The position numbers and the translations under genes were made by a program. A DNA stretch of 38,277 nt from Planctomycetia bacterium (lineage in GTDB: Bacteria; Planctomycetota; Phycisphaerae; Phycisphaerales; SM1A02). This document shows positions 7,836 through 33,705 of this stretch, piece after piece. Position 1 is the first letter of the stretch. Each line of letters begins with the position of its first letter. The stretch covers positions 1 through 38,277 of the forward strand of contig SXUJ01000013.1 of NCBI GenBank assembly GCA_005790565.1, given 5' to 3'. A model generated the notes under the pieces. That model did no database searches. It had not been told where the DNA came from and saw only the letters and a program-made list of their open reading frames with translations.

Positions 7836-8645
7836 ATGCCCTCATTACTCCTTCCCCTCACGATTGCGGCGATGCTTCAGGCCGCGCCTGTGACCCCGCA
7901 GGACGAGGCAGTCACGCAGTTGCTCGATCGACTTGAAGTCGCCGGGAAAGCGCTGACCACACTGGTGGGTCGCGTGGCCCTAGAACGCCAGGACGCCCTT
8001 GTCGGTGACAATGAGTTGCGTCGTGGGCGTCTTGTGCTCGAGCAGCAGAATGGCGCGCGGAGTTTCGCCTTTCGCTTCGAAGAGTTCATCGACGTGAACG
8101 GCAGAAGTGACCGGCATCTCGACCACTGGATTTACTCTGACGGTTGGTTGTGCGAACTTGATGCGCGCAATAAGTCGTTCACGAAACGACAGATCGTTGC
8201 TCCCGGACAACAATTGGATCCGTTGAAACTGGGCGAGGGACCGTTTCCCATTCCAACGGGACAGCCGAAGTCTGAAGTGCTCGCCCGATTTGAGGTGTGC
8301 TTAGCGTCGCTGCCATCGGATGTTCCGCTTTGGAAGAACTTGGCGGGAGTGGACGGACTGCGTCTGACGCCGAAGTCTGGCAGCGGCATGGAATCTGAGT
8401 TCAAGACTGTCGAAGTGTTCTACGATCACGAAACCCTTGCGCCGCTCGGCGTCCGTCTGACGAAGCCGAACCTCGATACAACGATCGTTCGCGTCTCTGC
8501 GTTCACCGTCAATGCGCCGTTGAGTGAGGAGGATCGCGCGTCGCTCAAGATTCCGGATCCTGATCCAAAGCTGTGGGCGATTGATGTGAGACCTTGGAAG
8601 CCCGCGCTGGACGCGCCGACGGCTCCGACCAAGCCCGCGAACTGA
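7836..8645 (+). CDS. Secreted LolA-like protein
   Basis: A protein of 269 residues (284 if the in-frame ATG at 7791 is used). The N-terminus is hydrophobic (PSLLLPLTIAAMLQAA) and looks like a signal peptide. The longer start adds arginines that would give a better n-region, while the 7836 start has a GGAG site 10 nt upstream, so the start is uncertain. The mature part begins with a helix containing 'LLDRLEVAGKALTTLVGRVALER', then alternating strands such as 'RRGRLVLEQQ', 'RSFAFRFEEFID' and 'HWIYSDGWLCELDARNKSFTKRQI'. This pattern is like LolA/LppX half-barrel proteins that carry lipids or lipoproteins through the periplasm. The assignment is by pattern only. It follows ribBA by 61 bp and precedes the TPR-peptidase by 56 bp, all on the same strand. 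Confidence 0.65.
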   Translation: MPSLLLPLTIAAMLQAAPVTPQDEAVTQLLDRLEVAGKALTTLVGRVALERQDALVGDNELRRGRLVLEQQNGARSFAFRFEEFIDVNGRSDRHLDHWIYSDGWLCELDARNKSFTKRQIVAPGQQLDPLKLGEGPFPIPTGQPKSEVLARFEVCLASLPSDVPLWKNLAGVDGLRLTPKSGSGMESEFKTVEVFYDHETLAPLGVRLTKPNLDTTIVRVSAFTVNAPLSEEDRASLKIPDPDPKLWAIDVRPWKPALDAPTAPTKPAN

Positions 8646-8701
8646 GTACGCGGGTACCGTACGACGCTGTTGTGGCGTTCACGCGATGTATCCACCCCCT
8701 G

Positions 8702-11389
8702 ATGGCGCGCGCCGTGCTCCTCGCATTCGCGTGGAGTTCGACACTGCTCGCGCAGACATTCGTGCCCGAGGTCGCGCCCCTCGTCGAGCAACTCGTCGAA
8801 GCAGAGCAAGCCTCGCATCTTTCGAAGGAAGAGCGCAAGGACTTCCGCGTTGCGCATGGGATCTATGACGACGCGGATCTTGATTCCCCGACGCGCACAG
8901 CGATCGCGGCGCTCCATGCGTGGCGGCTTGAGGACCCAGTCTTCGACGACGACACGCTTGCAGTGGAACTTCGCGCAGAGCCGCGCATGCGCCAAGGTCG
9001 TTTGACGGAGGTTCTCACGATACTGCAAGGCGCACCGAGCGCGCTTGCGGCAGCGATGCGAGCGGAGGCACTCGTGGGGCTCGACCGAGATGACGACGCG
9101 CGAGAAGAGATTCGCAGGAGCGCCGATGCGATGGCTCCCGCCGCGAGCGCGTCGGATCTCATCGCGCGTGCTCGCCTCATTGCCTTAGGCATTCGGCTCG
9201 GTGCCGACGGTTCCGACGGCGAACGAGCGATTCTTGGCCTCCTCGCACGCGCTCGCCAAGAGTTTGATCGATTCGATGCTGCGCCGCGCTTGATGGAAGG
9301 GGAACGGCTCGCGGCTCGAGGTGCGTTTGAACTCGCCGTCACTGCGCTGCTCGAAGCGCTCGCTCGGAATCCGCGCGATGCGGCCGCGTGGAAATCGCTC
9401 GGCGACCTTGCGATTGAGCGGTTTGATTTCGAGGGCGCGGAGCGCGCTGCGCATGCATTGCGACGCATTGCTCCGCAGCATCCGCTTGCGCTGCTCCTGG
9501 ATGCGCGCGCGGCGCTCCTTCGTGAGGACGTTCGCGCTGCGCAGGTCGCGCTCACGCCACTCGTCGAGTGTGCGAATCCGATTCCCGAGGCGCTTGCGTT
9601 GCGCGCGGCGCTCGACGCTGCACGCTATGACCTTGAGGGAGCGCGTCGCTGGCTGACGAAGATTGATGCGCTCATGCCAGGCAGCGCACTCGGACTGTCG
9701 ATTCTCGGTCGACAACTTTCGCTCGATCGCCAGTACGCGGATGCGCGCATCGTGCTCGAAGCCGCGGTCGCGCGTGAACCCTGCTGGCATGTCAGCGCGG
9801 TCGAACTCGGACTGATGCTGTTGCAGGCAGGCGAAGACGACGCCGGAATCGCGGCGCTCGATCGGGCGATTGCCCTCGATCCCTTCAACGAGCGCGCGCT
9901 CTTCAGCGCGAAACTAGCGCGGGAGATCGTGGGTTGGCCGCGCATCGAGACTGCGCACTTCATCATTCGCGCGCCCTTGGGCGAAGCGTCACTCGTCGCG
10001 GCGCTGATGGCGACAAGTCTTGAAGAGATGCACGAACGCGTCGTGGCGCGATTTGGGTACACGCCGAAGCGCAAGACGATTATCGATGTCATGCCAGACC
10101 ATCGGAGTTTTGGTGTGCGGATCACAGGCATGCCGCGGATTCACACGATCGCTGCAAGCACGGGTCCCGTCATCGCCATTGAGATCCCGAAAGAAGGCGC
10201 GCTCCCCAAGCACCTCGGACTGTTCGATTGGTTCACCGTCCTCACGCATGAGTACACGCACACGGTCACGCTCGAGCAGACACTCAATCGGTTGCCCCAC
10301 TGGTTCACCGAAGCATTGGCGGTTCGCATGGAGGAACTTCCGCGAGCCTACGAAACATGCCAGAAACTTGCGATCGCAGTGCAGCGGGGAACGCTGTTTG
10401 ATCTTGACAGCATCAATTGGGCGTTCATCCGACCCAAGCGAATGGGCGACCGCGAGATGGCGTACGCGCAAGGCGCGTGGATGGTCGAGTGCATGGAGGA
10501 GTTGTTTGGGCGAGAGGCGGTTCGGACGCTTCTGTTGCAGTACGCGCTCGGCGCGAAGGAAGATGAAGCAATGCGCACCGCGTTTGGAGTGTCGCGTGCA
10601 GAGTTCCTCGCTCAGTTTCGCCTATGGGCGCGCGCGCAGGTTTCGAGTTGGGGTCTTGCGCCGTCGCCTTCCGTGGCTGCGTTGACCCAGAGCTTGTCCG
10701 AAGGTGATGAAGAAGCAGAGCGGCACGCGGCCCTTGCCGAGGCGAAGCGATTGAATGCCGTCGTGGATCGATGGCATCGTGCGATTGGAGAGGCGGCGAA
10801 TGCGCACCTTCGATTCGACGCGTCGGCATGGCCTGCGCGTGAAGGTCCCGCGGTTGAGCTCGACGACGCGACGCTCCTTGCCTTCCTCGAGCGTCATCCG
10901 GATCATCCAGATCTTCTTGAAGCGGTGATCCGCCGTCGCCTCTCGAGTGGCTCGACCGCGCTCGATGCGCAGACGGCTGCGCTTCTTCATCGTTACTCGA
11001 TCGCGCGACCGGTGGACCCGTTTCCGCATCGTGAGTTCGCGAAGGCGTTGCGTGGAACACCGCATGCGGACGATGCCCTCGCACATCTTCGGGAGGTCGA
11101 TCTTCGCACCGACAAGGACCCGTCGATCCCCGCGGAGTGCGCGCGATTACAGAGTGTCGCGCTCGATCATGCAGGCGCAGCAGCGAGCGCGCAGCGCGCC
11201 GTTCGAATGAACCCATTCGATCCCGCGTTGCGCGAACTCGCGGCCAAGTGTTGGATCGAAGCTGGGGAGTTGGAACGCGCGCGCGCGCATCTGATGGCGT
11301 TGTTGGAACTCGAACCGGGACGCGCGATCCATCAGAGGCGGCTCGAACGGCTCCAAGAACTCATGGATGGCGGGACGCCTGCCGAATAA
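8702..11389 (+). CDS. Large TPR protein with embedded gluzincin (Peptidase_MA-like) motif
   Basis: An 895-residue predicted secreted or periplasmic protein. A signal peptide (about 1-18, ending LLAQ) is followed by an alpha-helical TPR superhelix covering roughly 80-400; repeats such as 'LLEALARNPRDAAAWKSLGDLA' type units and 'ALDPFNERALFSAK' are visible. A zinc-peptidase domain follows, with HEYTH at 516-520 and a candidate third ligand E537 in 'WFTEALA', the spacing (HExxH + 17 + E) of gluzincins. More TPR-like helices fill 680-895, ending in 'HLMALLELEPGRAIHQRRL'. The whole looks like a protein-interaction scaffold with a built-in peptidase, a design I associate with planctomycetes and acidobacteria. 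The substrate is unknown. ATG 8702 starts the signal peptide directly; the frame extends upstream without sense. It is Arg/Ala-rich, like its neighbours. Confidence 0.8.
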   Translation: MARAVLLAFAWSSTLLAQTFVPEVAPLVEQLVEAEQASHLSKEERKDFRVAHGIYDDADLDSPTRTAIAALHAWRLEDPVFDDDTLAVELRAEPRMRQGRLTEVLTILQGAPSALAAAMRAEALVGLDRDDDAREEIRRSADAMAPAASASDLIARARLIALGIRLGADGSDGERAILGLLARARQEFDRFDAAPRLMEGERLAARGAFELAVTALLEALARNPRDAAAWKSLGDLAIERFDFEGAERAAHALRRIAPQHPLALLLDARAALLREDVRAAQVALTPLVECANPIPEALALRAALDAARYDLEGARRWLTKIDALMPGSALGLSILGRQLSLDRQYADARIVLEAAVAREPCWHVSAVELGLMLLQAGEDDAGIAALDRAIALDPFNERALFSAKLAREIVGWPRIETAHFIIRAPLGEASLVAALMATSLEEMHERVVARFGYTPKRKTIIDVMPDHRSFGVRITGMPRIHTIAASTGPVIAIEIPKEGALPKHLGLFDWFTVLTHEYTHTVTLEQTLNRLPHWFTEALAVRMEELPRAYETCQKLAIAVQRGTLFDLDSINWAFIRPKRMGDREMAYAQGAWMVECMEELFGREAVRTLLLQYALGAKEDEAMRTAFGVSRAEFLAQFRLWARAQVSSWGLAPSPSVAALTQSLSEGDEEAERHAALAEAKRLNAVVDRWHRAIGEAANAHLRFDASAWPAREGPAVELDDATLLAFLERHPDHPDLLEAVIRRRLSSGSTALDAQTAALLHRYSIARPVDPFPHREFAKALRGTPHADDALAHLREVDLRTDKDPSIPAECARLQSVALDHAGAAASAQRAVRMNPFDPALRELAAKCWIEAGELERARAHLMALLELEPGRAIHQRRLERLQELMDGGTPAE

Positions 11390-11522: not shown

Positions 11523-12557
11523 ATGAAATTCACCGCACTAACTGTCGGGCTGCTCTCTGTCTCGCCGGCGTTTGCCGCAGAGATCTATGACTGCACATTT
11601 TCCCCTACGAGCAATCTCGTAACGACCTTGTCGATGGATGTGCCGTTTACGGGGACACTCATCGGGAATTACGACGCAACCACGATGCCAACGGGGACTC
11701 GGACGATTCCGGGCCTGTTCGGTGGCTCGGGCAACAATCCAATTCCATACACGGCATCGTTCGGCGTCGATGGTGGGACGAACTCGACGCCCGCGGGCGC
11801 GTTCCAGTTCAGCTTCGAGCACGTTGGCAAGCAAGCGGCTGGCGCGATTAGCGGTCTCGCGATTGATGTGCTTGATGGATCGGTCGGCAGCGCCGATCTC
11901 GCGCTCACGATCAACTACTCGACCTTCCACACGGTCGCGCCGAATTCAATCTACCCTGGAGGTATTCCGATCACGCTTCCGTTCGGAACTGCGAATGTCA
12001 CGGTCTTGACGCTCGTCCAGTCCGGTCCCGCGCCGGTTATGTTGACGATGGCGAAGGGCGGTGGGTACACCTTCACGGCCGCGGTTCCGGTGCTGATGAC
12101 GATGTCCGCGGACGCCGCGGGGCAAGTACTCGATGTCCCCCCGACGCCCGGGATTCTCCCGCTGACCGGCTCGTTGTCATTCAAGGGTGGCCTCGTCACA
12201 CTGGTCGCAACCACCTCGCAAGAATCGAGCGGTACACAGCCATCCACCGCGCCGCCGTTTGTCGATCAGCCGATTGCGATGCCCACGGTTCTTCCGGCCG
12301 GCGGCACCGCCAACCTGCTGATGAGTGGGCAGGTTACCGAGGTGACATCCTCGCAATCGACCAATGGCACGCTTTACGCTTCAGGGACGCAGATCATCGT
12401 TTGCCCTGAAGATCTCAATCATGATGGCATCGTTGATGCGGAAGACCTTTCGATCCTTCTCAATGGCTGGAATACGGCGAGTGCGGACATCGATGGCGAT
12501 GGAACTTCCAACGCGCAAGATCTTGCAGCGCTCCTCAATGCATGGGGCGCTTGCTAG
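11523..12557 (+). CDS. Secreted protein with C-terminal dockerin-like repeat pair
   Basis: A 344-residue exported protein of unknown function. The signal peptide is clear (MKFTALTVGLLSVSPAFAAE, cleavage after about residue 19). Residues 20-285 are Gly/Thr/Ser-rich and beta-strand-like, with few charges, suggesting an extracellular beta-sandwich; I do not recognise the family. Residues 291-344 form a dockerin-like tail. Loop one is DLNHDGIVDAEDLSILLNGW and loop two DIDGDGTSNAQDLAALLNAW, each with the Asp/Asn ligands of an EF-hand calcium loop. It ends GAC, pairing with the Cys of 'VCPEDL'. The final NAW codons overlap the start codon of the next gene by 20 nt, so the two are translationally coupled. 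First gene of a three-gene unit. Confidence 0.82.
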   Translation: MKFTALTVGLLSVSPAFAAEIYDCTFSPTSNLVTTLSMDVPFTGTLIGNYDATTMPTGTRTIPGLFGGSGNNPIPYTASFGVDGGTNSTPAGAFQFSFEHVGKQAAGAISGLAIDVLDGSVGSADLALTINYSTFHTVAPNSIYPGGIPITLPFGTANVTVLTLVQSGPAPVMLTMAKGGGYTFTAAVPVLMTMSADAAGQVLDVPPTPGILPLTGSLSFKGGLVTLVATTSQESSGTQPSTAPPFVDQPIAMPTVLPAGGTANLLMSGQVTEVTSSQSTNGTLYASGTQIIVCPEDLNHDGIVDAEDLSILLNGWNTASADIDGDGTSNAQDLAALLNAWGAC

Positions 12558-13893
12558 GCTCCTCGTTACCCTCAGCCTCTTGTTCACGCTCGTCACCGTC
12601 GCGCATGCCGACGAGCCACTTGTGTTCGCACAGCCTGTGTTTGACTTGATGCCCGCGGGCGTTGGCCCAGCGATGTTGCGCGCGCGCGACCTTGATGGCG
12701 ATGGCTTCCTCGACCTCGTCGTGCCTGCGCGGAGCGTCGATGGAACATCGGTGGTCCTGCGTGGCGTGGGTGATGGCCACTTCGTGATCTGGCAGGAGTT
12801 GGCGGTCGGAAACTTCAGTGACTGGGCGGAACTTGAAGACTTCGATGGCGATGCGATCGTTGACATTCTCTTTGGCGTACGGGGCGACCCATCGCAACTC
12901 GCCTTGTTCAAGGGAGGCGAGGGCGGCATTTTTAGGGACACTTCGATTCGGGTCGAGCTGGGTCGCGACAACTCCTCCCTTACCTCCGGCGACTTCGACG
13001 GAGATGGAGATCGCGACGTTGCTGCGACGAACTACTTGGGCGCGAGCGTGGATGTCCTGTGGAATTCGGGGGATGGGCACTTCACGCGCTCCGCGCGCTT
13101 GGATGTTGCGAGGTGGACCGGAGCGATTGCGTATCCACGACAGATTGAAGCGTGTGATGTCGATGGAGATAAGGACCTCGACCTGCTCGTCGTACTGACG
13201 GGAAGCGGTCGACTGGCGCTCTTGCGCAATGACGGAAGTGGTTCATTTGCGAAGAGCCGTGAATGGCAGGTGCCCCAGATTGGCGATGAGCGACCTGGGT
13301 TTGCGACGATGGCACTCGCGGACCTTGACGCCGACGGCGACATGGATGTCCTCGGCACCGCGCTCCTTCTTGCAACCGTCCAGAAGAGCATCGCATTCAT
13401 GAATGACGGAACGGGAGAGTTCGCACGGCGCATCGTGCTCGAAGGAACACCGCTCGGTTACGCCTTTAGCGTGTGCCTCGGCGACTTTGATCATGATGGG
13501 GATCTCGATGCAGCGCAAGGCGCCGCGCTGCCAGGTCTCGTCGTGCCGCTTCGCAACACTGGAGGAAGCGCAACGCCGATCCTGCTCGCTGATCAGTTTC
13601 TTGGTATCGGGCAATTGCCTCGTTACCTCATTGCGATTGATGTCGACAATGATTGCGATCTCGACATCGTCGGCTGCGACGCGCCCGTGCAGGCCGTGTT
13701 TACGGCAATCAATCTCACGCCGCAGTTGGATGGATGTTCACCACGAACGGGATTGCTCCCTCCGGTTGGGGTGAAGGCTCGTACCGCGAACGCTCGTGCG
13801 CAAACGGCGATCTCCGCGATCGACCACAACGAGGACGGCGTGCGGAGTGCGGCCGACATTGCACTCGAGTTGCAGGCGGAGAGGAAGCGATGA
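12538..13893 (+). CDS. Secreted FG-GAP/VCBS seven-bladed beta-propeller protein
   Basis: A 451-residue exported protein. The signal peptide runs to about 'VTVAHADEP' (1-24). Seven calcium-loop motifs of the D-x-D-x-DG-x-x-D type start at residues 51, 101, 152, 207, 262, 316 and 368, spaced 50-55 apart, matching an integrin-alpha-like seven-bladed FG-GAP propeller. Such propellers bind ligands or partner proteins on the cell surface. The C-terminus has a single, degenerate EF-hand, DHNEDGVRSAADI, resembling half of a dockerin-like pair. ATG 12538 lies inside the last codons of the upstream gene; the frame before it gives no signal peptide. The stop overlaps the next start as ATGA (13890-13893). 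The function is unknown; export and propeller fold are well supported. Confidence 0.85.
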   Translation: MHGALARLLVTLSLLFTLVTVAHADEPLVFAQPVFDLMPAGVGPAMLRARDLDGDGFLDLVVPARSVDGTSVVLRGVGDGHFVIWQELAVGNFSDWAELEDFDGDAIVDILFGVRGDPSQLALFKGGEGGIFRDTSIRVELGRDNSSLTSGDFDGDGDRDVAATNYLGASVDVLWNSGDGHFTRSARLDVARWTGAIAYPRQIEACDVDGDKDLDLLVVLTGSGRLALLRNDGSGSFAKSREWQVPQIGDERPGFATMALADLDADGDMDVLGTALLLATVQKSIAFMNDGTGEFARRIVLEGTPLGYAFSVCLGDFDHDGDLDAAQGAALPGLVVPLRNTGGSATPILLADQFLGIGQLPRYLIAIDVDNDCDLDIVGCDAPVQAVFTAINLTPQLDGCSPRTGLLPPVGVKARTANARAQTAISAIDHNEDGVRSAADIALELQAERKR

Positions 13894-14921
13894 CGGGTTG
13901 TTGCGCCGCGGTTTCACTCCTGCTTTGTGCCTCGACGACGATGGCGCAGCAGTGCCCCGGCGTGGGCGATTGCCGCAAGCCACATGCCGAGCCTGGATGC
14001 GTGATGCCTGAGTGTTGCACTTTGGTCTGCGAGGCAAATCCACTTTGCTGCGATTTCTCTTGGGATCAGGCGTGCGCAGATCTCGCGCTCAAACTTTGTG
14101 AAGGGATCAACTGCCCAGCAGAAGGCGAGTGCGGCGCGTCGCACGCATCCCCAGGCTGCGATCAGTTTCCTTGTTGCGACTTCATTTGCGCGATTGACGG
14201 TTGGTGCTGTTCCGTGACTTGGGACGAGGCGTGTGCGAATGAAGCGGCTCGGATGTGTGGAGTGAGTGCATGCACGATTGCGATTCCCTCGGACGCGATC
14301 GCTGAACTTGAGCCGTGCTACGAGCATTTCAATGATGGCTGTAGCAAAGCACCCTTCGCAACGCGCGCGGTGCTCTTTGGAAACGCATACGCGGGTAAGT
14401 TCGCAACCGACGCTCCGCGCGACACCGATTGGATGTCCTTGGGCGGCGGGAACGCGGGAGACGAAGTTCGAGTGCAACTCGCGAGTGAGTTTCCGTGGGA
14501 GTTTCAAATCGTGAAGGGCTCTTGTGAAGGTCCGCTTGAGGTTCCGATTCTTGCGCACGGCGGCCCGTGTGGTGACGCGGTCACGCTCGTGTTCACGGTG
14601 CCGACCGGCGAGTGGTACGCCGTCTTGACAGGTGGGGTGGAGACGCGGACATTTCGCGAAGCATTCACTTGCGACGAGGTGGACCCGCTCGCACCTCCTC
14701 CGAAAGAGCCGCCCGAGCCAAGCCCGTACGGATTGCGCTACTGGTTGCGTTTCACCCACCACCTCGCAGCAGATCTTGATGGAGATGGGCGCGTCGATGC
14801 GGCGGATCTGTCCATCCTGCTCAATGCGTGGGGTTCCAATGGCCGTTTGGGTGACCTTGACGGGAATGGGTGGGTGGATGCAGCCGATCTGACTGCGCTC
14901 TTGAACGCTTGGTCTCTGTGA
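13890..14921 (+). CDS. Secreted protein with two ten-cysteine modules and dockerin-like tail
   Basis: A 343-residue exported protein. The signal peptide (1-20) ends at 'STTMAQ'. Residues 22-70 and 75-123 are two copies of a module with ten cysteines each, in identical spacing (see repeat entry), including the conserved 'C-CDxxWDxxCAxxA' core. A middle domain (about 128-285) starts with 'DGCSKAPF' and contains 'RDTDWMSL' and several cysteines; it looks like the beta-rich domain often found beside such modules. After a Pro-rich linker (PPPKEPPEPSP) the tail carries two calcium-loop repeats, DLDGDGRVDAADLSILLNAW and DLDGNGWVDAADLTALLNAW. It is coupled to the propeller gene by an ATGA overlap. 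The likely location is the cell surface or outside; its role is not known. Confidence 0.82.
   Translation: MTGCCAAVSLLLCASTTMAQQCPGVGDCRKPHAEPGCVMPECCTLVCEANPLCCDFSWDQACADLALKLCEGINCPAEGECGASHASPGCDQFPCCDFICAIDGWCCSVTWDEACANEAARMCGVSACTIAIPSDAIAELEPCYEHFNDGCSKAPFATRAVLFGNAYAGKFATDAPRDTDWMSLGGGNAGDEVRVQLASEFPWEFQIVKGSCEGPLEVPILAHGGPCGDAVTLVFTVPTGEWYAVLTGGVETRTFREAFTCDEVDPLAPPPKEPPEPSPYGLRYWLRFTHHLAADLDGDGRVDAADLSILLNAWGSNGRLGDLDGNGWVDAADLTALLNAWSL
13953..14258 (+). repeat. Tandem ten-cysteine protein module (53-residue period)
   Basis: Two coding repeats, 13953-14099 and 14112-14258. Both have the exact pattern C-x5-C-x8-C-x4-CC-x3-C-x5-CC-x7-C-x7-C. Every cysteine of copy two lies 53 residues after its partner. 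Other shared positions include PGC, CCDF or CCTL, SWDQACA/TWDEACA and the final MC/LC. The residues in between have diverged, so the duplication is old and the cysteines are under selection, probably as disulphides. Confidence 0.9.
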
Positions 14922-31124: not shown

Positions 31125-31973
31125 CTAGCGAACCGCGTCATGCTCTCGGAGCACCGCATCGGGAATGAGTTTGCTCGTGAGTGCGTAGGGAAGCAGTTTG
31201 CACATGCAGGCGGCGAACTTGTTGAAGGCACCGGGAACGACCAGCACGCGATTCTCTTCGACGCCGCGCAATCCGGCTTCCACAACCGCGCGCGAGTCCA
31301 TCCACATGTACTTCGGAAGTTTGTTCATTTGCGCTCTGCAGCCGAGCGCGTCGTGGAACTCCGTGTGCGTGAATCCGGGGCAGAGTGCCGTACAATGCAC
31401 ACCGGTCTTGAGCAGATTCAAGCGCAGCGCACGACTCGCGCTCGTCATCATGGACTTGGTGGGCGAGTACAAACTGCCGGGCGGCTCCGGTCCGAGTGAA
31501 GCAAGACTCGACACATGGAGCAATCGACCGTAACCGCGAGCGCGCATCGCGGGAAGGAAGAGATGCGTGAGATGCAGCCACGCACTCACCATGACTTGCA
31601 AGAAATCGGCGTGCGCCGACCACGGGACATCGAGGAATCTGCCGCGAAGTCCATAGCCGGCGTTGTTCACGAGGAAACTGACTTCAAGTCCAGATCCCTC
31701 CACGATGGAGTAGATCTCGCGCGGCGCGGTCGGCACCGCGAGATCCATCGCAATCACCATCGCGCGGGCTGCGTACTTGCTCGCGACTTCTCGCTTGAGG
31801 GCGATCAATCGATCTTCGCGCCGCGCAACCACAACCAGGTCGAAGCCGCGTTGCGCGAGCGCAATCGCGAAATCACGGCCAAGGCCGCTCGACGCGCCTG
31901 TCACGAGCGCAACGGGGCGTGGCGTAGCCACCGCAGTTGGCGTGAGATCCGTTTGAATGACTTCACTTTGCAT
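31125..31973 (-). CDS. Short-chain dehydrogenase/reductase
   Basis: A 282-residue classical SDR oxidoreductase. The cofactor motif TGASSGLG is at residues 25-32, after a hydrophobic strand (RPVALVT). 'ARREDRLIALK' supplies a basic residue pair typical of NADP preference. NNAG is present (FLVNNAGYG). The active site has 'HVSSLAS' and Y-x3-K (LYSPTKS). The C-terminal region after 'ALCPGFTHTEFHD' is longer than in short SDRs and carries 'LVVPGAFNKFAACMCKLLP', as in the DltE/YqjQ-type subgroup that acts on lipids or fatty-acyl chains. Substrate unknown. ATG 31973 gives a 20-residue lead before the Rossmann fold; the frame upstream is not protein-like. It is the first gene of the co-directional run and diverges from the subtilisin gene across 127 bp. 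Confidence 0.9.
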   Translation of the reverse strand: MQSEVIQTDLTPTAVATPRPVALVTGASSGLGRDFAIALAQRGFDLVVVARREDRLIALKREVASKYAARAMVIAMDLAVPTAPREIYSIVEGSGLEVSFLVNNAGYGLRGRFLDVPWSAHADFLQVMVSAWLHLTHLFLPAMRARGYGRLLHVSSLASLGPEPPGSLYSPTKSMMTSASRALRLNLLKTGVHCTALCPGFTHTEFHDALGCRAQMNKLPKYMWMDSRAVVEAGLRGVEENRVLVVPGAFNKFAACMCKLLPYALTSKLIPDAVLREHDAVR

Positions 31974-32100
31974 CCAAGGGATGGTGTACCACGGTTCGCG
32001 CAAGGACGGGGGATCGCGCGTCGTCTTGAGAAAAGTGAATGAATCGGGGTTGCGTCGGCATTTCCATGATTCACACTCTGCTGCACGAGGATCATCCATC
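31974..32100. promoter_or_regulatory. Divergent promoter region of the SDR and subtilisin genes
   Basis: The 127 bp between two divergent starts must contain both promoters. I see no convincing -35/-10 pair or operator palindrome. A gagga site 10-15 bp before 32101 could be the ribosome site of the protease gene. Confidence 0.3.
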
Positions 32101-33705
32101 ATGAACTCAACGCCCGCAATATGCATCCTGCGCCTACCGACCGCCGTCCCCGCAATTCTTGCTGCCGTGATCGCCGTCCTGTTTGCGTCAAGTGCGAGTG
32201 CGGCTGAGGCCGCGCTGGCACCCGACCGCGATGCGTGGTGGATCATGCTTGCGCCAAAGGAACTTCCCAAGCGCGCGCTCCGACTCTCCGATACTCCGCT
32301 CACCCAACGAGCGGTCGATCGCCGCGCCGCGCGAGGTTCGATGCGGGAGCTCATTTCTTCCGCGGACCTCCCGATCGCCCAAGCGCGAATCGACTGCGTG
32401 ACGGCAACGGGCGCGTCGCTTCGAACAGTGAGTCGATGGCTCAACCTTGCGAGCGTGAACGCAACGCCAGCCGAGCTCCGCAGCATTGTCAGGTTGCCCT
32501 TCGTGCGGGGCGCATTTCCAGTGCATCACTCACAGCGCGTCGAACTCGTGGAGTCTGGCGAGGCAGTTGAGGGTGGTATCGCGGGAAGCGGCGCTTGGAG
32601 CGACGCCCAACTGACGCAGATCGGCGTGGATGGAATGCATGCGCGTGGTTTCTTCGGAGCAGGGCAGATCATCGGCGTCCTTGACACAGGCTTTCACCGA
32701 TCGCACGCCGGATTTTCGTCGGTTGCGCATCCGCTCGATGTGATTGCTGAGTGGGACTTCATCAACAACGATGGCAACACGGGCATCGAACCTGGTGACC
32801 CTGGCAATCAGCATTGGCACGGAAGTGCGGTGCTCGGGTTCATGGGCGCGTATCTACCCGGACAAATGATTGGAGCCGCGTACGAGGCGCAGTTCATCCT
32901 CGCGAAGACGGAAGATGTTTCGAGCGAGACGCCCATCGAAGAGGATTACTATGTGGCTGGGTTGGAGTTCATTGAAGCCAATGGCGCGGATATCGCAACG
33001 AGTTCGCTCGGCTACATCGATTGGTACACGCCGGAGCAACTTGACGGTGTGACGGCGGTTACTTCTCGTGGTGTCAACATCGCCACCGCGCTGGGCATGA
33101 TCTGCTGCACCGCTGCGGGAAATCAGGGCAACGACGGCAATCCAGCAACCAATCACCTGCTCGCGCCTGCGGATGCACTCCAAGTGATATCTTGCGGGGC
33201 GGTTGAATTCGATGGCGCGACCGCGTGGTTTACGAGCGATGGCCCGAGCGCCGACGGCCGCGTGAAGCCCGAGGTTTGCGCGCGCGGCGTGAATTGCTAC
33301 ACGATCGATCCAAACAACCCCGCCGCGATCACTTCCGGAAGTGGGACGAGCTTCGCGACGCCACTCGTCGCGGGCGCAGTGGCGACCGTGCTGCAAGCGC
33401 GCGCGGAGTACAGCGTGAACGCAATGCGCAACGCACTCTTCACGACCGCAAGTGACATGCTGGCGAATGGAACCTTCGATTCGTTGTACCGGCGCGGATA
33501 CGGCATCATGGATGCATTGGGTGCGGCATCGATCAATCGTGATCTCGAAGACATCAACCTAGATGGATTTGTCGGCGCTGCGGATCTCGCGATTCTGCTC
33601 AACGCATGGGGACCGTGCGCGGATATCTGTCCGACGGACTTCAACAACGATGGAGTTGTTGATGCCGCTGACCTCGCGACGCTTCTCGCCTCATGGGGCA
33701 GCTAG
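32101..33705 (+). CDS. Secreted subtilisin-like S8 protease with dockerin-like tail
   Basis: A 534-residue exported serine protease. The signal peptide covers about 1-35 (ending 'SASAAEA'). Residues 44-150 are a propeptide-like region with 'LTQRAVDRRAARG', 'DLPIAQARIDCVTATGASLRTVSRWLN'-type sequence and 'LPFVRGAFPV', known from other secreted S8 enzymes. The triad is D195 (GVLDTGF), H240 (HGSAVLG) and S417 (GTSFATP), with oxyanion Asn341 (AAGNQG). Residues 483-534 are two EF-hand dockerin-like loops: DINLDGFVGAADLAILLNAW and DFNNDGVVDAADLATLLASW. The second loop follows a Cys pair. The protease should act outside the cell and may be docked or stabilised by calcium. The stop shares CTAG (33702-33705) with the convergent gene. 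Confidence 0.93.
   Translation: MNSTPAICILRLPTAVPAILAAVIAVLFASSASAAEAALAPDRDAWWIMLAPKELPKRALRLSDTPLTQRAVDRRAARGSMRELISSADLPIAQARIDCVTATGASLRTVSRWLNLASVNATPAELRSIVRLPFVRGAFPVHHSQRVELVESGEAVEGGIAGSGAWSDAQLTQIGVDGMHARGFFGAGQIIGVLDTGFHRSHAGFSSVAHPLDVIAEWDFINNDGNTGIEPGDPGNQHWHGSAVLGFMGAYLPGQMIGAAYEAQFILAKTEDVSSETPIEEDYYVAGLEFIEANGADIATSSLGYIDWYTPEQLDGVTAVTSRGVNIATALGMICCTAAGNQGNDGNPATNHLLAPADALQVISCGAVEFDGATAWFTSDGPSADGRVKPEVCARGVNCYTIDPNNPAAITSGSGTSFATPLVAGAVATVLQARAEYSVNAMRNALFTTASDMLANGTFDSLYRRGYGIMDALGAASINRDLEDINLDGFVGAADLAILLNAWGPCADICPTDFNNDGVVDAADLATLLASWGS

What the first reader, a model, noticed from the sequence alone, without database searches (positions are those of the whole stretch)
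11523..14921. Translationally coupled trio of surface proteins: dockerin-like, seven-bladed propeller, ten-Cys modules
Three exported proteins with different folds are linked by a 20-nt overlap and an ATGA. All carry calcium-loop tails (one reduced to a single degenerate loop). Tight coupling suggests a stoichiometric extracellular complex. This is the best candidate in the window for an undescribed system.
Basis: partly seen in the sequence, partly recalled or inferred. Interest (0 to 1): 0.55.

Follow-up and report, generated by a model that had tools for sequence, protein, structure and literature searches.

The report
Coupled propeller and cysteine-rich protein pair
In a planctomycete that probably lives in lakes, two neighbouring genes for exported proteins behave like one protein cut in two (in several relatives they are fused), while a third gene beside them looks like a separate protein that stays nearby mainly because that stretch of chromosome is conserved.

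Summary
The three genes are real and placed as described: A 11523-12557, B 12538-13893, C 13890-14921. The trio should be split. B and C are one unit: in the 52 best of 101 family genomes C lies beside B or fused to it wherever the contig allows a check (50 of 50). Eighteen are single fused ORFs; the fused/unfused state changed at least 3 times on a quick tree. The other pairs keep a 4-nt NTGA overlap in 30 of 32 loci. B's calcium tail is usually cut to one loop or none while C keeps a full dockerin. A is loosely tied: its linkage to B-C is no better than that of neighbouring housekeeping-type genes, genus-level co-occurrence is not significant, and A occurs without B-C, also outside the class with a different tail. 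Folds: A beta-barrel; B seven FG-GAP repeats; C two ten-Cys modules, a PPC-like domain, a dockerin. Dockerins occur in 98 of 101 family genomes; cohesins in 14, and in none of the 4 of this genus. Most likely B-C is a two-chain surface-displayed binding protein; ligand and tail receptor are unknown.

The parts
11523..12557 (+). Gene A, 344 aa: signal-peptide-like start, beta-barrel body, two-loop dockerin tail
11580..12395 (+). A body (residues 20-291), antiparallel beta-barrel with a conserved GTLIGNYDAxTNPxGTxTxPGLFGGSGNxPI stretch; no Pfam or NCBIfam family
12402..12554 (+). A dockerin tail (residues 294-344; loops at 297 and 322)
12538..12557 (+). A/B overlap of 20 nt; absent in at least 4 of the 8 other A-B-C loci
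12538..13893 (+). Gene B, 451 aa: signal-peptide-like start, seven FG-GAP repeats, reduced tail
12625..13737 (+). B FG-GAP repeats (about residues 30-400) with seven calcium-loop motifs
13822..13857 (+). B residual half-dockerin: one degenerate calcium loop (residues 429-440); a single loop, or only the helix-like part after it, ends most unfused B relatives
13890..13893 (+). B/C stop-start overlap ATGA, kept as NTGA in 30 of 32 unfused family loci
13890..14921 (+). Gene C, 343 aa: signal-peptide-like start, two ten-Cys modules, PPC-like domain, two-loop dockerin tail
13953..14099 (+). C ten-Cys module 1 (residues 22-70)
14112..14258 (+). C ten-Cys module 2 (residues 75-123)
14292..14762 (+). 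C PPC-like / collagenase collagen-binding-domain fold (about residues 135-291)
14763..14918 (+). C dockerin tail (residues 292-343; loops at 295 and 322)

Best explanation
B and C are the two halves of one secreted, surface-displayed binding protein. B is a calcium-loaded seven-repeat FG-GAP propeller (the binding head). C is a disulfide-rich segment (two ten-Cys modules) plus a PPC-like beta-sandwich and a dockerin-type tail that serves as the display anchor for the pair. The two chains are made together by stop/start coupling, exported separately, and assemble outside the inner membrane; B's own tail has decayed to a half-dockerin or a linker. In several lineages the two are a single chain. 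A is a separate exported beta-barrel protein with the same kind of tail; it shares the locus mostly because a longer stretch of chromosome is conserved, and is not shown to be a partner. The tail is a lineage-wide tag, replaced on the A body by an unrelated tail domain outside the class. Shown: gene structure, domains, overlap, fusions, tail decay, tail exchange. Inferred: translational coupling, a physical B-C complex, cell-surface location, a binding role, that the tail is an anchor. Unknown: ligand and tail receptor.
For: The 52 genomes with the best match to the C body (E <= 1.6e-33) of 101 family genomes give 32 unfused B-C pairs, 18 fused ORFs and 2 loci where a contig end hides B (window included). 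NTGA overlap in 30 of 32 unfused family loci and 25 of 25 loci of the named set, which overlaps the first set. Fused ORFs show no second signal peptide at the junction (by eye). On a quick tree the fused label needs 4 changes (two-state count) or 5 (against all other groups), 3 forced by starred branches. Loop counts in the family loci: C tails two loops in 48 of 52; unfused B one loop in 20 of 32, none in 8, two in 4; fused junction none in 14 of 18, one in 4. Named set: B one loop in 17 of 26, none in 9; C two or three in 35 of 35; fused junction none in 9 of 9. PPC fold for C's middle: Z 10.6, 108 of 111 residues, rmsd 2.6. The A body carries a different 132-aa tail in family f36, where that tail matches 50-65 places in each of 4 genomes and none in the window's genome. 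Dockerin in 98 of 101 genomes.
Against: No interaction was tested, and no complex was predicted (single-chain folds of A and C only; B was not folded). The binding role rests on domain types alone. In one search the C start codon nearest B's stop was taken, which favours finding an overlap; starts are not verified. The B loop count is patchy: about a quarter of B tails show no loop by the pattern, and in 4 divergent loci B keeps a full dockerin, so 'one anchor per pair' is not universal. Surface location was not tested.
Confidence: 0.62

Rival explanations
1. A, B and C together form one stoichiometric extracellular complex.
For: A is near B-C in 29 of 41 family genomes with both, in two orders, A-B-C (9) and B-C-A (20, one with B cut off by a contig end). 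Genome-level co-occurrence 41/24/11/25, Fisher p = 0.002.
Against: That test ignores relatedness; at genus level p = 0.35. Neighbouring housekeeping-type genes are linked to B-C about as often. A occurs without B-C in 24 of 101 family genomes, and in the phylum sample in families f2 and f36, where the C-body profile finds nothing at E <= 1e-15. In the named set, of 47 loci with at least 6 kb on both sides of A, 26 have no B-C there. The A/B overlap is not conserved. No fusion of A to B or C was seen in the loci examined.
Confidence: 0.18
2. The tails plug into cohesins: the proteins are parts of a cohesin/dockerin scaffold, as in the 'planctosome' proposed for lacustrine Phycisphaerae (PMC6461901).
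For: A and C tails are dockerins by Pfam score and by fold (Z 8.2 and 9.4 to 2y3n_B). The paper reports cohesin/dockerin modules in Nemodlikiaceae (passages seen).
Against: PF00963 finds no cohesin in the window's genome, in 0 of 4 genomes of its genus, and in 14 of 101 family genomes, 10 over the cut-off, while dockerins occur in 98 of 101. A diverged cohesin could be missed, and the paper's own finding of cohesins in this lineage speaks against a clean absence.
Confidence: 0.12
3. A is an outer-membrane beta-barrel (OmpA/NspA-like) that holds the tail and its partners at the outer membrane.
For: The best fold matches are 8-stranded outer-membrane barrels: NspA Z 15.7, 153 residues aligned of 155; OmpA 15.4.
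Against: Soluble barrels also match, less well (1wub Z 9.7, BcnB 10.2). The A body has no Trp, 7% aromatics and 24 Pro in 273 residues, unlike the aromatic-girdled membrane barrels I recall. Foldseek TM-scores are low. Which face of the strands points inward could not be computed.
Confidence: 0.1

Closest known systems
GC-type dockerin domain-anchored proteins (NCBIfam NF041540) / Dockerin_1 (PF00404)
   Same: Tails of A and C: two calcium loops at the extreme C-terminus; dozens of such tails in the genome
   Different: No cohesin found in this genus; B keeps only half a dockerin, or a linker in the fused forms
FG-GAP repeat proteins (PF13517, PF01839; the likeness to integrin-alpha propellers is recalled)
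   Same: B has seven repeats with calcium loops
   Different: B is coupled or fused to a Cys-module/PPC-like/dockerin chain
PPC domain (PF04151) / clostridial collagenase collagen-binding domain
   Same: Fold of C residues 135-291, Z 10.6
   Different: No Pfam match in the window protein; sits between Cys modules and a dockerin (that PPC usually follows a peptidase is recalled)
'Planctosome' hypothesis (PMC6461901, passages seen)
   Same: Related lake lineage: A of MAG ZH-13MAY13-plancto70 is 70% identical, and the paper names that MAG while discussing Nemodlikiaceae; dockerin modules
   Different: That model uses cohesin-bearing scaffold proteins and peptidases; none is among the three proteins here

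Membership tests
Dockerin_1 (PF00404) | Sequence score over the curated cut-off | tested here: met
   A 34.5, C 27.2 bits against 22.9; B no match
Dockerin_1 (PF00404) | Duplicated calcium loop | tested here: met
   A and C two loops; B only one
Cohesin-dockerin scaffold / planctosome | Cohesin domain in the same genome | tested here: not met
   PF00963: 0 in own genome; 0 of 4 in the genus, 14 of 101 in the family; a diverged cohesin could be missed
GC-type dockerin (NF041540) | Score over the cut-off of 29 bits | tested here: inconclusive
   A 28.6, C 26.7 by hmmscan; 32.2 and 31.7 in the six-frame search
FG-GAP_3 (PF13517) | Score over the cut-off | tested here: met
   B 129 bits against 26.9, five stretches
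Seven-bladed beta-propeller | Seven repeats closing a propeller | tested here: inconclusive
   Seven loop motifs; B was not folded
PPC (PF04151) | Sequence match over the cut-off | tested here: not met
   Window protein none; 2 of 35 relatives match at E <= 1, best 0.0018
PPC (PF04151) | Collagenase-CBD type fold | tested here: met
   Predicted model: Z 10.6, rmsd 2.6, 108 of 111 residues
OmpA/NspA outer-membrane barrel | Membrane-inserted barrel | not testable with these tools
   Fold similarity only
YceI / lipocalin-like soluble barrel | Family sequence match | tested here: inconclusive
   No such Pfam match at E <= 1 for A or 45 aligned A bodies; fold Z 9.7-10.2 to two such barrels

The most novel reading that the evidence does not exclude
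These planctomycetes display dozens of exported proteins through a cohesin-independent dockerin system in which the tail is an exchangeable tag (dockerin in this family; an unannotated ~132-aa domain, found at 50-65 places per genome, in a family of another class). B-C is a split-chain receptor or adhesin whose half-dockerin on B completes or packs against C, so that one anchor serves two chains.
Probability: 0.22. Interest if true: 0.65.

Novelty: new variant of a known kind. Interest (0 to 1): 0.42.

Why it matters
The conserved overlap and repeated fusion make a definite, testable prediction of a two-chain surface protein in uncultured aquatic bacteria. The tail exchange on A makes a wider open question testable: what holds dockerin-tailed proteins in genomes in which no cohesin is detected.

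Tried and rejected
Three-part complex as the main reading: set down to a rival after the neighbour-gene control and the genus-level test. Cohesin scaffold: no cohesin detected in the genus. A as part of a known sequence family: none over a cut-off in Pfam or NCBIfam; a PDB sequence search hit the tail only. Foldseek alone gave A only low TM-scores to secretins and barrels, so I used the second aligner. The fold of the ten-Cys module alone was not tested: the rows for C are filled by the PPC and dockerin parts. Long N-terminal extensions of A in L141 and L160 and of B-C in L095 and L125 show no Pfam domain before the known ones at E <= 0.1; I take them for upstream frame extensions and claim no further fusions. 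My first regular expression for dockerin loops was wrong (tail counts near zero) and was replaced. The conserved-neighbour clustering mixed real and shadow frames, so I use only its flank count. Neither B nor a complex was predicted: both prediction jobs went to A and C. Paper searches: GC-type dockerin (0 papers), planctosome (4), FG-GAP with dockerin and cohesin (0), dockerin with Phycisphaer (4), dockerin with Planctomycet, C-terminal and surface (7); by title and start of abstract none describes this gene pair. One search was too broad to be of use. Only passages of PMC6461901 were read.
Full report
WHAT IS THERE. The window is contig C129 of a 2.66 Mb genome in 177 contigs. B's ATG at 12538, which has a signal-peptide-like start behind it (by eye), lies inside the end of A; C's ATG shares four bases with B's TGA. 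A and C score as Dockerin_1, B as FG-GAP. B has seven calcium-loop repeats and one further degenerate loop near its end. C has two ten-Cys modules.

THE TAILS ARE GENOME-WIDE. The tail of C matches dozens of places in the genome and the GC-dockerin model 51, 23 of them over its cut-off. In a sample of 101 genomes of the family (drawn from a larger group), Dockerin_1 is found in 98. So tails on neighbouring genes are no evidence of a shared complex. Cohesin (PF00963) is not found in this genome, in 0 of 4 genomes of the genus, and in 14 of 101 of the family, 10 over the cut-off.

RELATIVES. In the 101 family genomes A is found in 65. The B (75) and C (70) searches are unspecific, since FG-GAP repeats and Cys modules are common. 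I therefore took the places that match the whole C body: 52 genomes at E <= 1.6e-33, before the first paralogue at 5e-30. Fetched stretches and a domain table gave 32 unfused B-C pairs, 18 fused ORFs and 2 loci (L129, L130) cut by a contig end (window included). A scan of a named genome collection found 120 relatives of A, of which the best 80 were kept: 11 A-B-C, 14 B-C-A, 9 B-C-A with B and C fused, 1 A-B, 1 C-A, 44 A alone. Among the 47 of these with at least 6 kb on both sides, 26 are A alone. Most record titles say Planctomycet- or Phycisphaer-; a few bear other names (Kuenenia, Limnohabitans, Chitinophaga and the like). L164 is MAG ZH-13MAY13-plancto70 from Lake Zurich, with A 70% identical; PMC6461901 names it while discussing replication in the lake clade Nemodlikiaceae (passage), though the passage does not state its family outright. 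That the window's organism lives in lakes is inferred from such relatives.

B AND C ARE ONE UNIT. The stop/start overlap NTGA is kept in 30 of 32 unfused family loci; the two exceptions (L110, L111, one genus) start C 25 nt after the stop. It is kept in 25 of 25 named loci. The start codon nearest B's stop was taken, which favours overlap; starts are not verified. Fused ORFs have a plain linker at the junction without a second hydrophobic start (by eye). On a quick tree of 52 C bodies the fused label needs 4 changes (two states, cut loci left out) or 5 (against all other groups), at least 3 forced by starred branches. B's tail decays in step: two loops in 4 divergent loci, one in 20 of 32 by a strict pattern, none in 8; in the fused forms the linker has one loop in 4 of 18 and none in 14; C keeps two loops in 48 of 52. 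One of the 20 (L112) is a propeller loop, and two of the 8 (L082, L083) carry a near-loop that the pattern misses. Several loop-less B tails and fused linkers keep a short helix-like motif of the WLxxx type (by eye). I read this as one anchor for two chains; that is an inference from sequence, not a measured complex.

A IS A NEIGHBOUR. Of 41 family genomes with A and B-C, 29 have them within a few kb (A-B-C in 9, B-C-A in 20, one of the latter, G089, with B cut off by the contig end) and 12 apart; in one of the 12 (G038) both lie at contig ends and cannot be judged. But the block is syntenic. Outside the genus, 48 B-C loci hold A in 25, the threonine-dehydratase-like gene in 22, the TPR-peptidase and its upstream neighbour in 20 each, the ThiC-like gene in 18, the PDZ gene in 2 (the dehydratase and ThiC names are mine from the sequence, not from a family search). 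Stretch lengths differ, so genes farther away are undercounted. Genome-level co-occurrence is 41 both, 24 A only, 11 B-C only, 25 neither (p = 0.002, relatedness ignored); at genus level 18/11/7/9, p = 0.35. Some absences may be gaps in incomplete genomes. In 4 of the 8 other A-B-C loci the longest B frame begins after A's stop, so the A/B overlap is not conserved. In a phylum sample of 294 genomes the A profile matches 11: 2 of the window's family, 2 of family f2 (same order) and 7 of family f36 (outside the class). The C-body profile at E <= 1e-15 matches only the 2 of the window's family.

TAIL EXCHANGE. The one f2 protein scanned ends in a GC-dockerin (40.1 bits). In f36 the A body ends in another domain, with no Pfam or NCBIfam match at E <= 1 in the three proteins scanned. 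That domain matches 51, 59, 65 and 50 places in four f36 genomes and none in the window's genome. Among the 80 named A loci, 5 carry it. The tail is thus an exchangeable, lineage-wide module. That it is a display anchor is the simplest reading and is not shown.

FOLDS. A (74 aligned sequences, pLDDT 91.6) is an antiparallel beta-barrel, closest to NspA (Z 15.7) and OmpA (15.4), with soluble barrels (1wub, BcnB) at 9.7-10.2. Composition (no Trp, 7% aromatic) makes me favour a soluble barrel; the fold ranking alone would favour a membrane one. C (35 sequences, pLDDT 86) has a PPC/collagenase-CBD domain (Z 10.6) and a dockerin (Z 9.4). This agrees with weak profile hits to the same collagenase domains (E 0.2-0.9) and PPC hits in 2 of 35 relatives.

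VERDICT. Function as a binding or adhesion protein is my best guess from the domains.

Noticed in passing
L255:6944-7339 (-), L250:7120-8385, L256:7410-8690, and four f36 genomes: A ~132-aa C-terminal domain without Pfam or NCBIfam match occurs at 50-65 places per genome in family f36 and replaces the dockerin on the A body.
   Followed up: partly
own genome contig C19, about 26.5-29.4 kb (-) (L002): A frame with nine of the ten-Cys modules by pattern; further module proteins on C97 and other contigs.
   Followed up: partly
L088:1136-2938, L106:11048-12865, L114:9803-11515, L131:4050-5759, L118:12902-14764: A second FG-GAP protein with a dockerin tail lies near B-C in five loci, on the opposite strand to B-C in four of them and on the same strand in L118.
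   Followed up: no
L089-L092: A second, diverged A paralogue sits between C and A in four genomes of one genus.
   Followed up: no
window 8594-11389: TPR protein with a Peptidase_MA-type domain and an HEYTH motif (by eye), found in 20 of 48 B-C loci outside the genus.
   Followed up: partly
L159:2856-3895 (-): A is split over two overlapping ORFs in this genome, a possible frameshift.
   Followed up: no
window 31957-33705: Another protein of the same window ends in a dockerin tail (match at 33547-33699).
   Followed up: no
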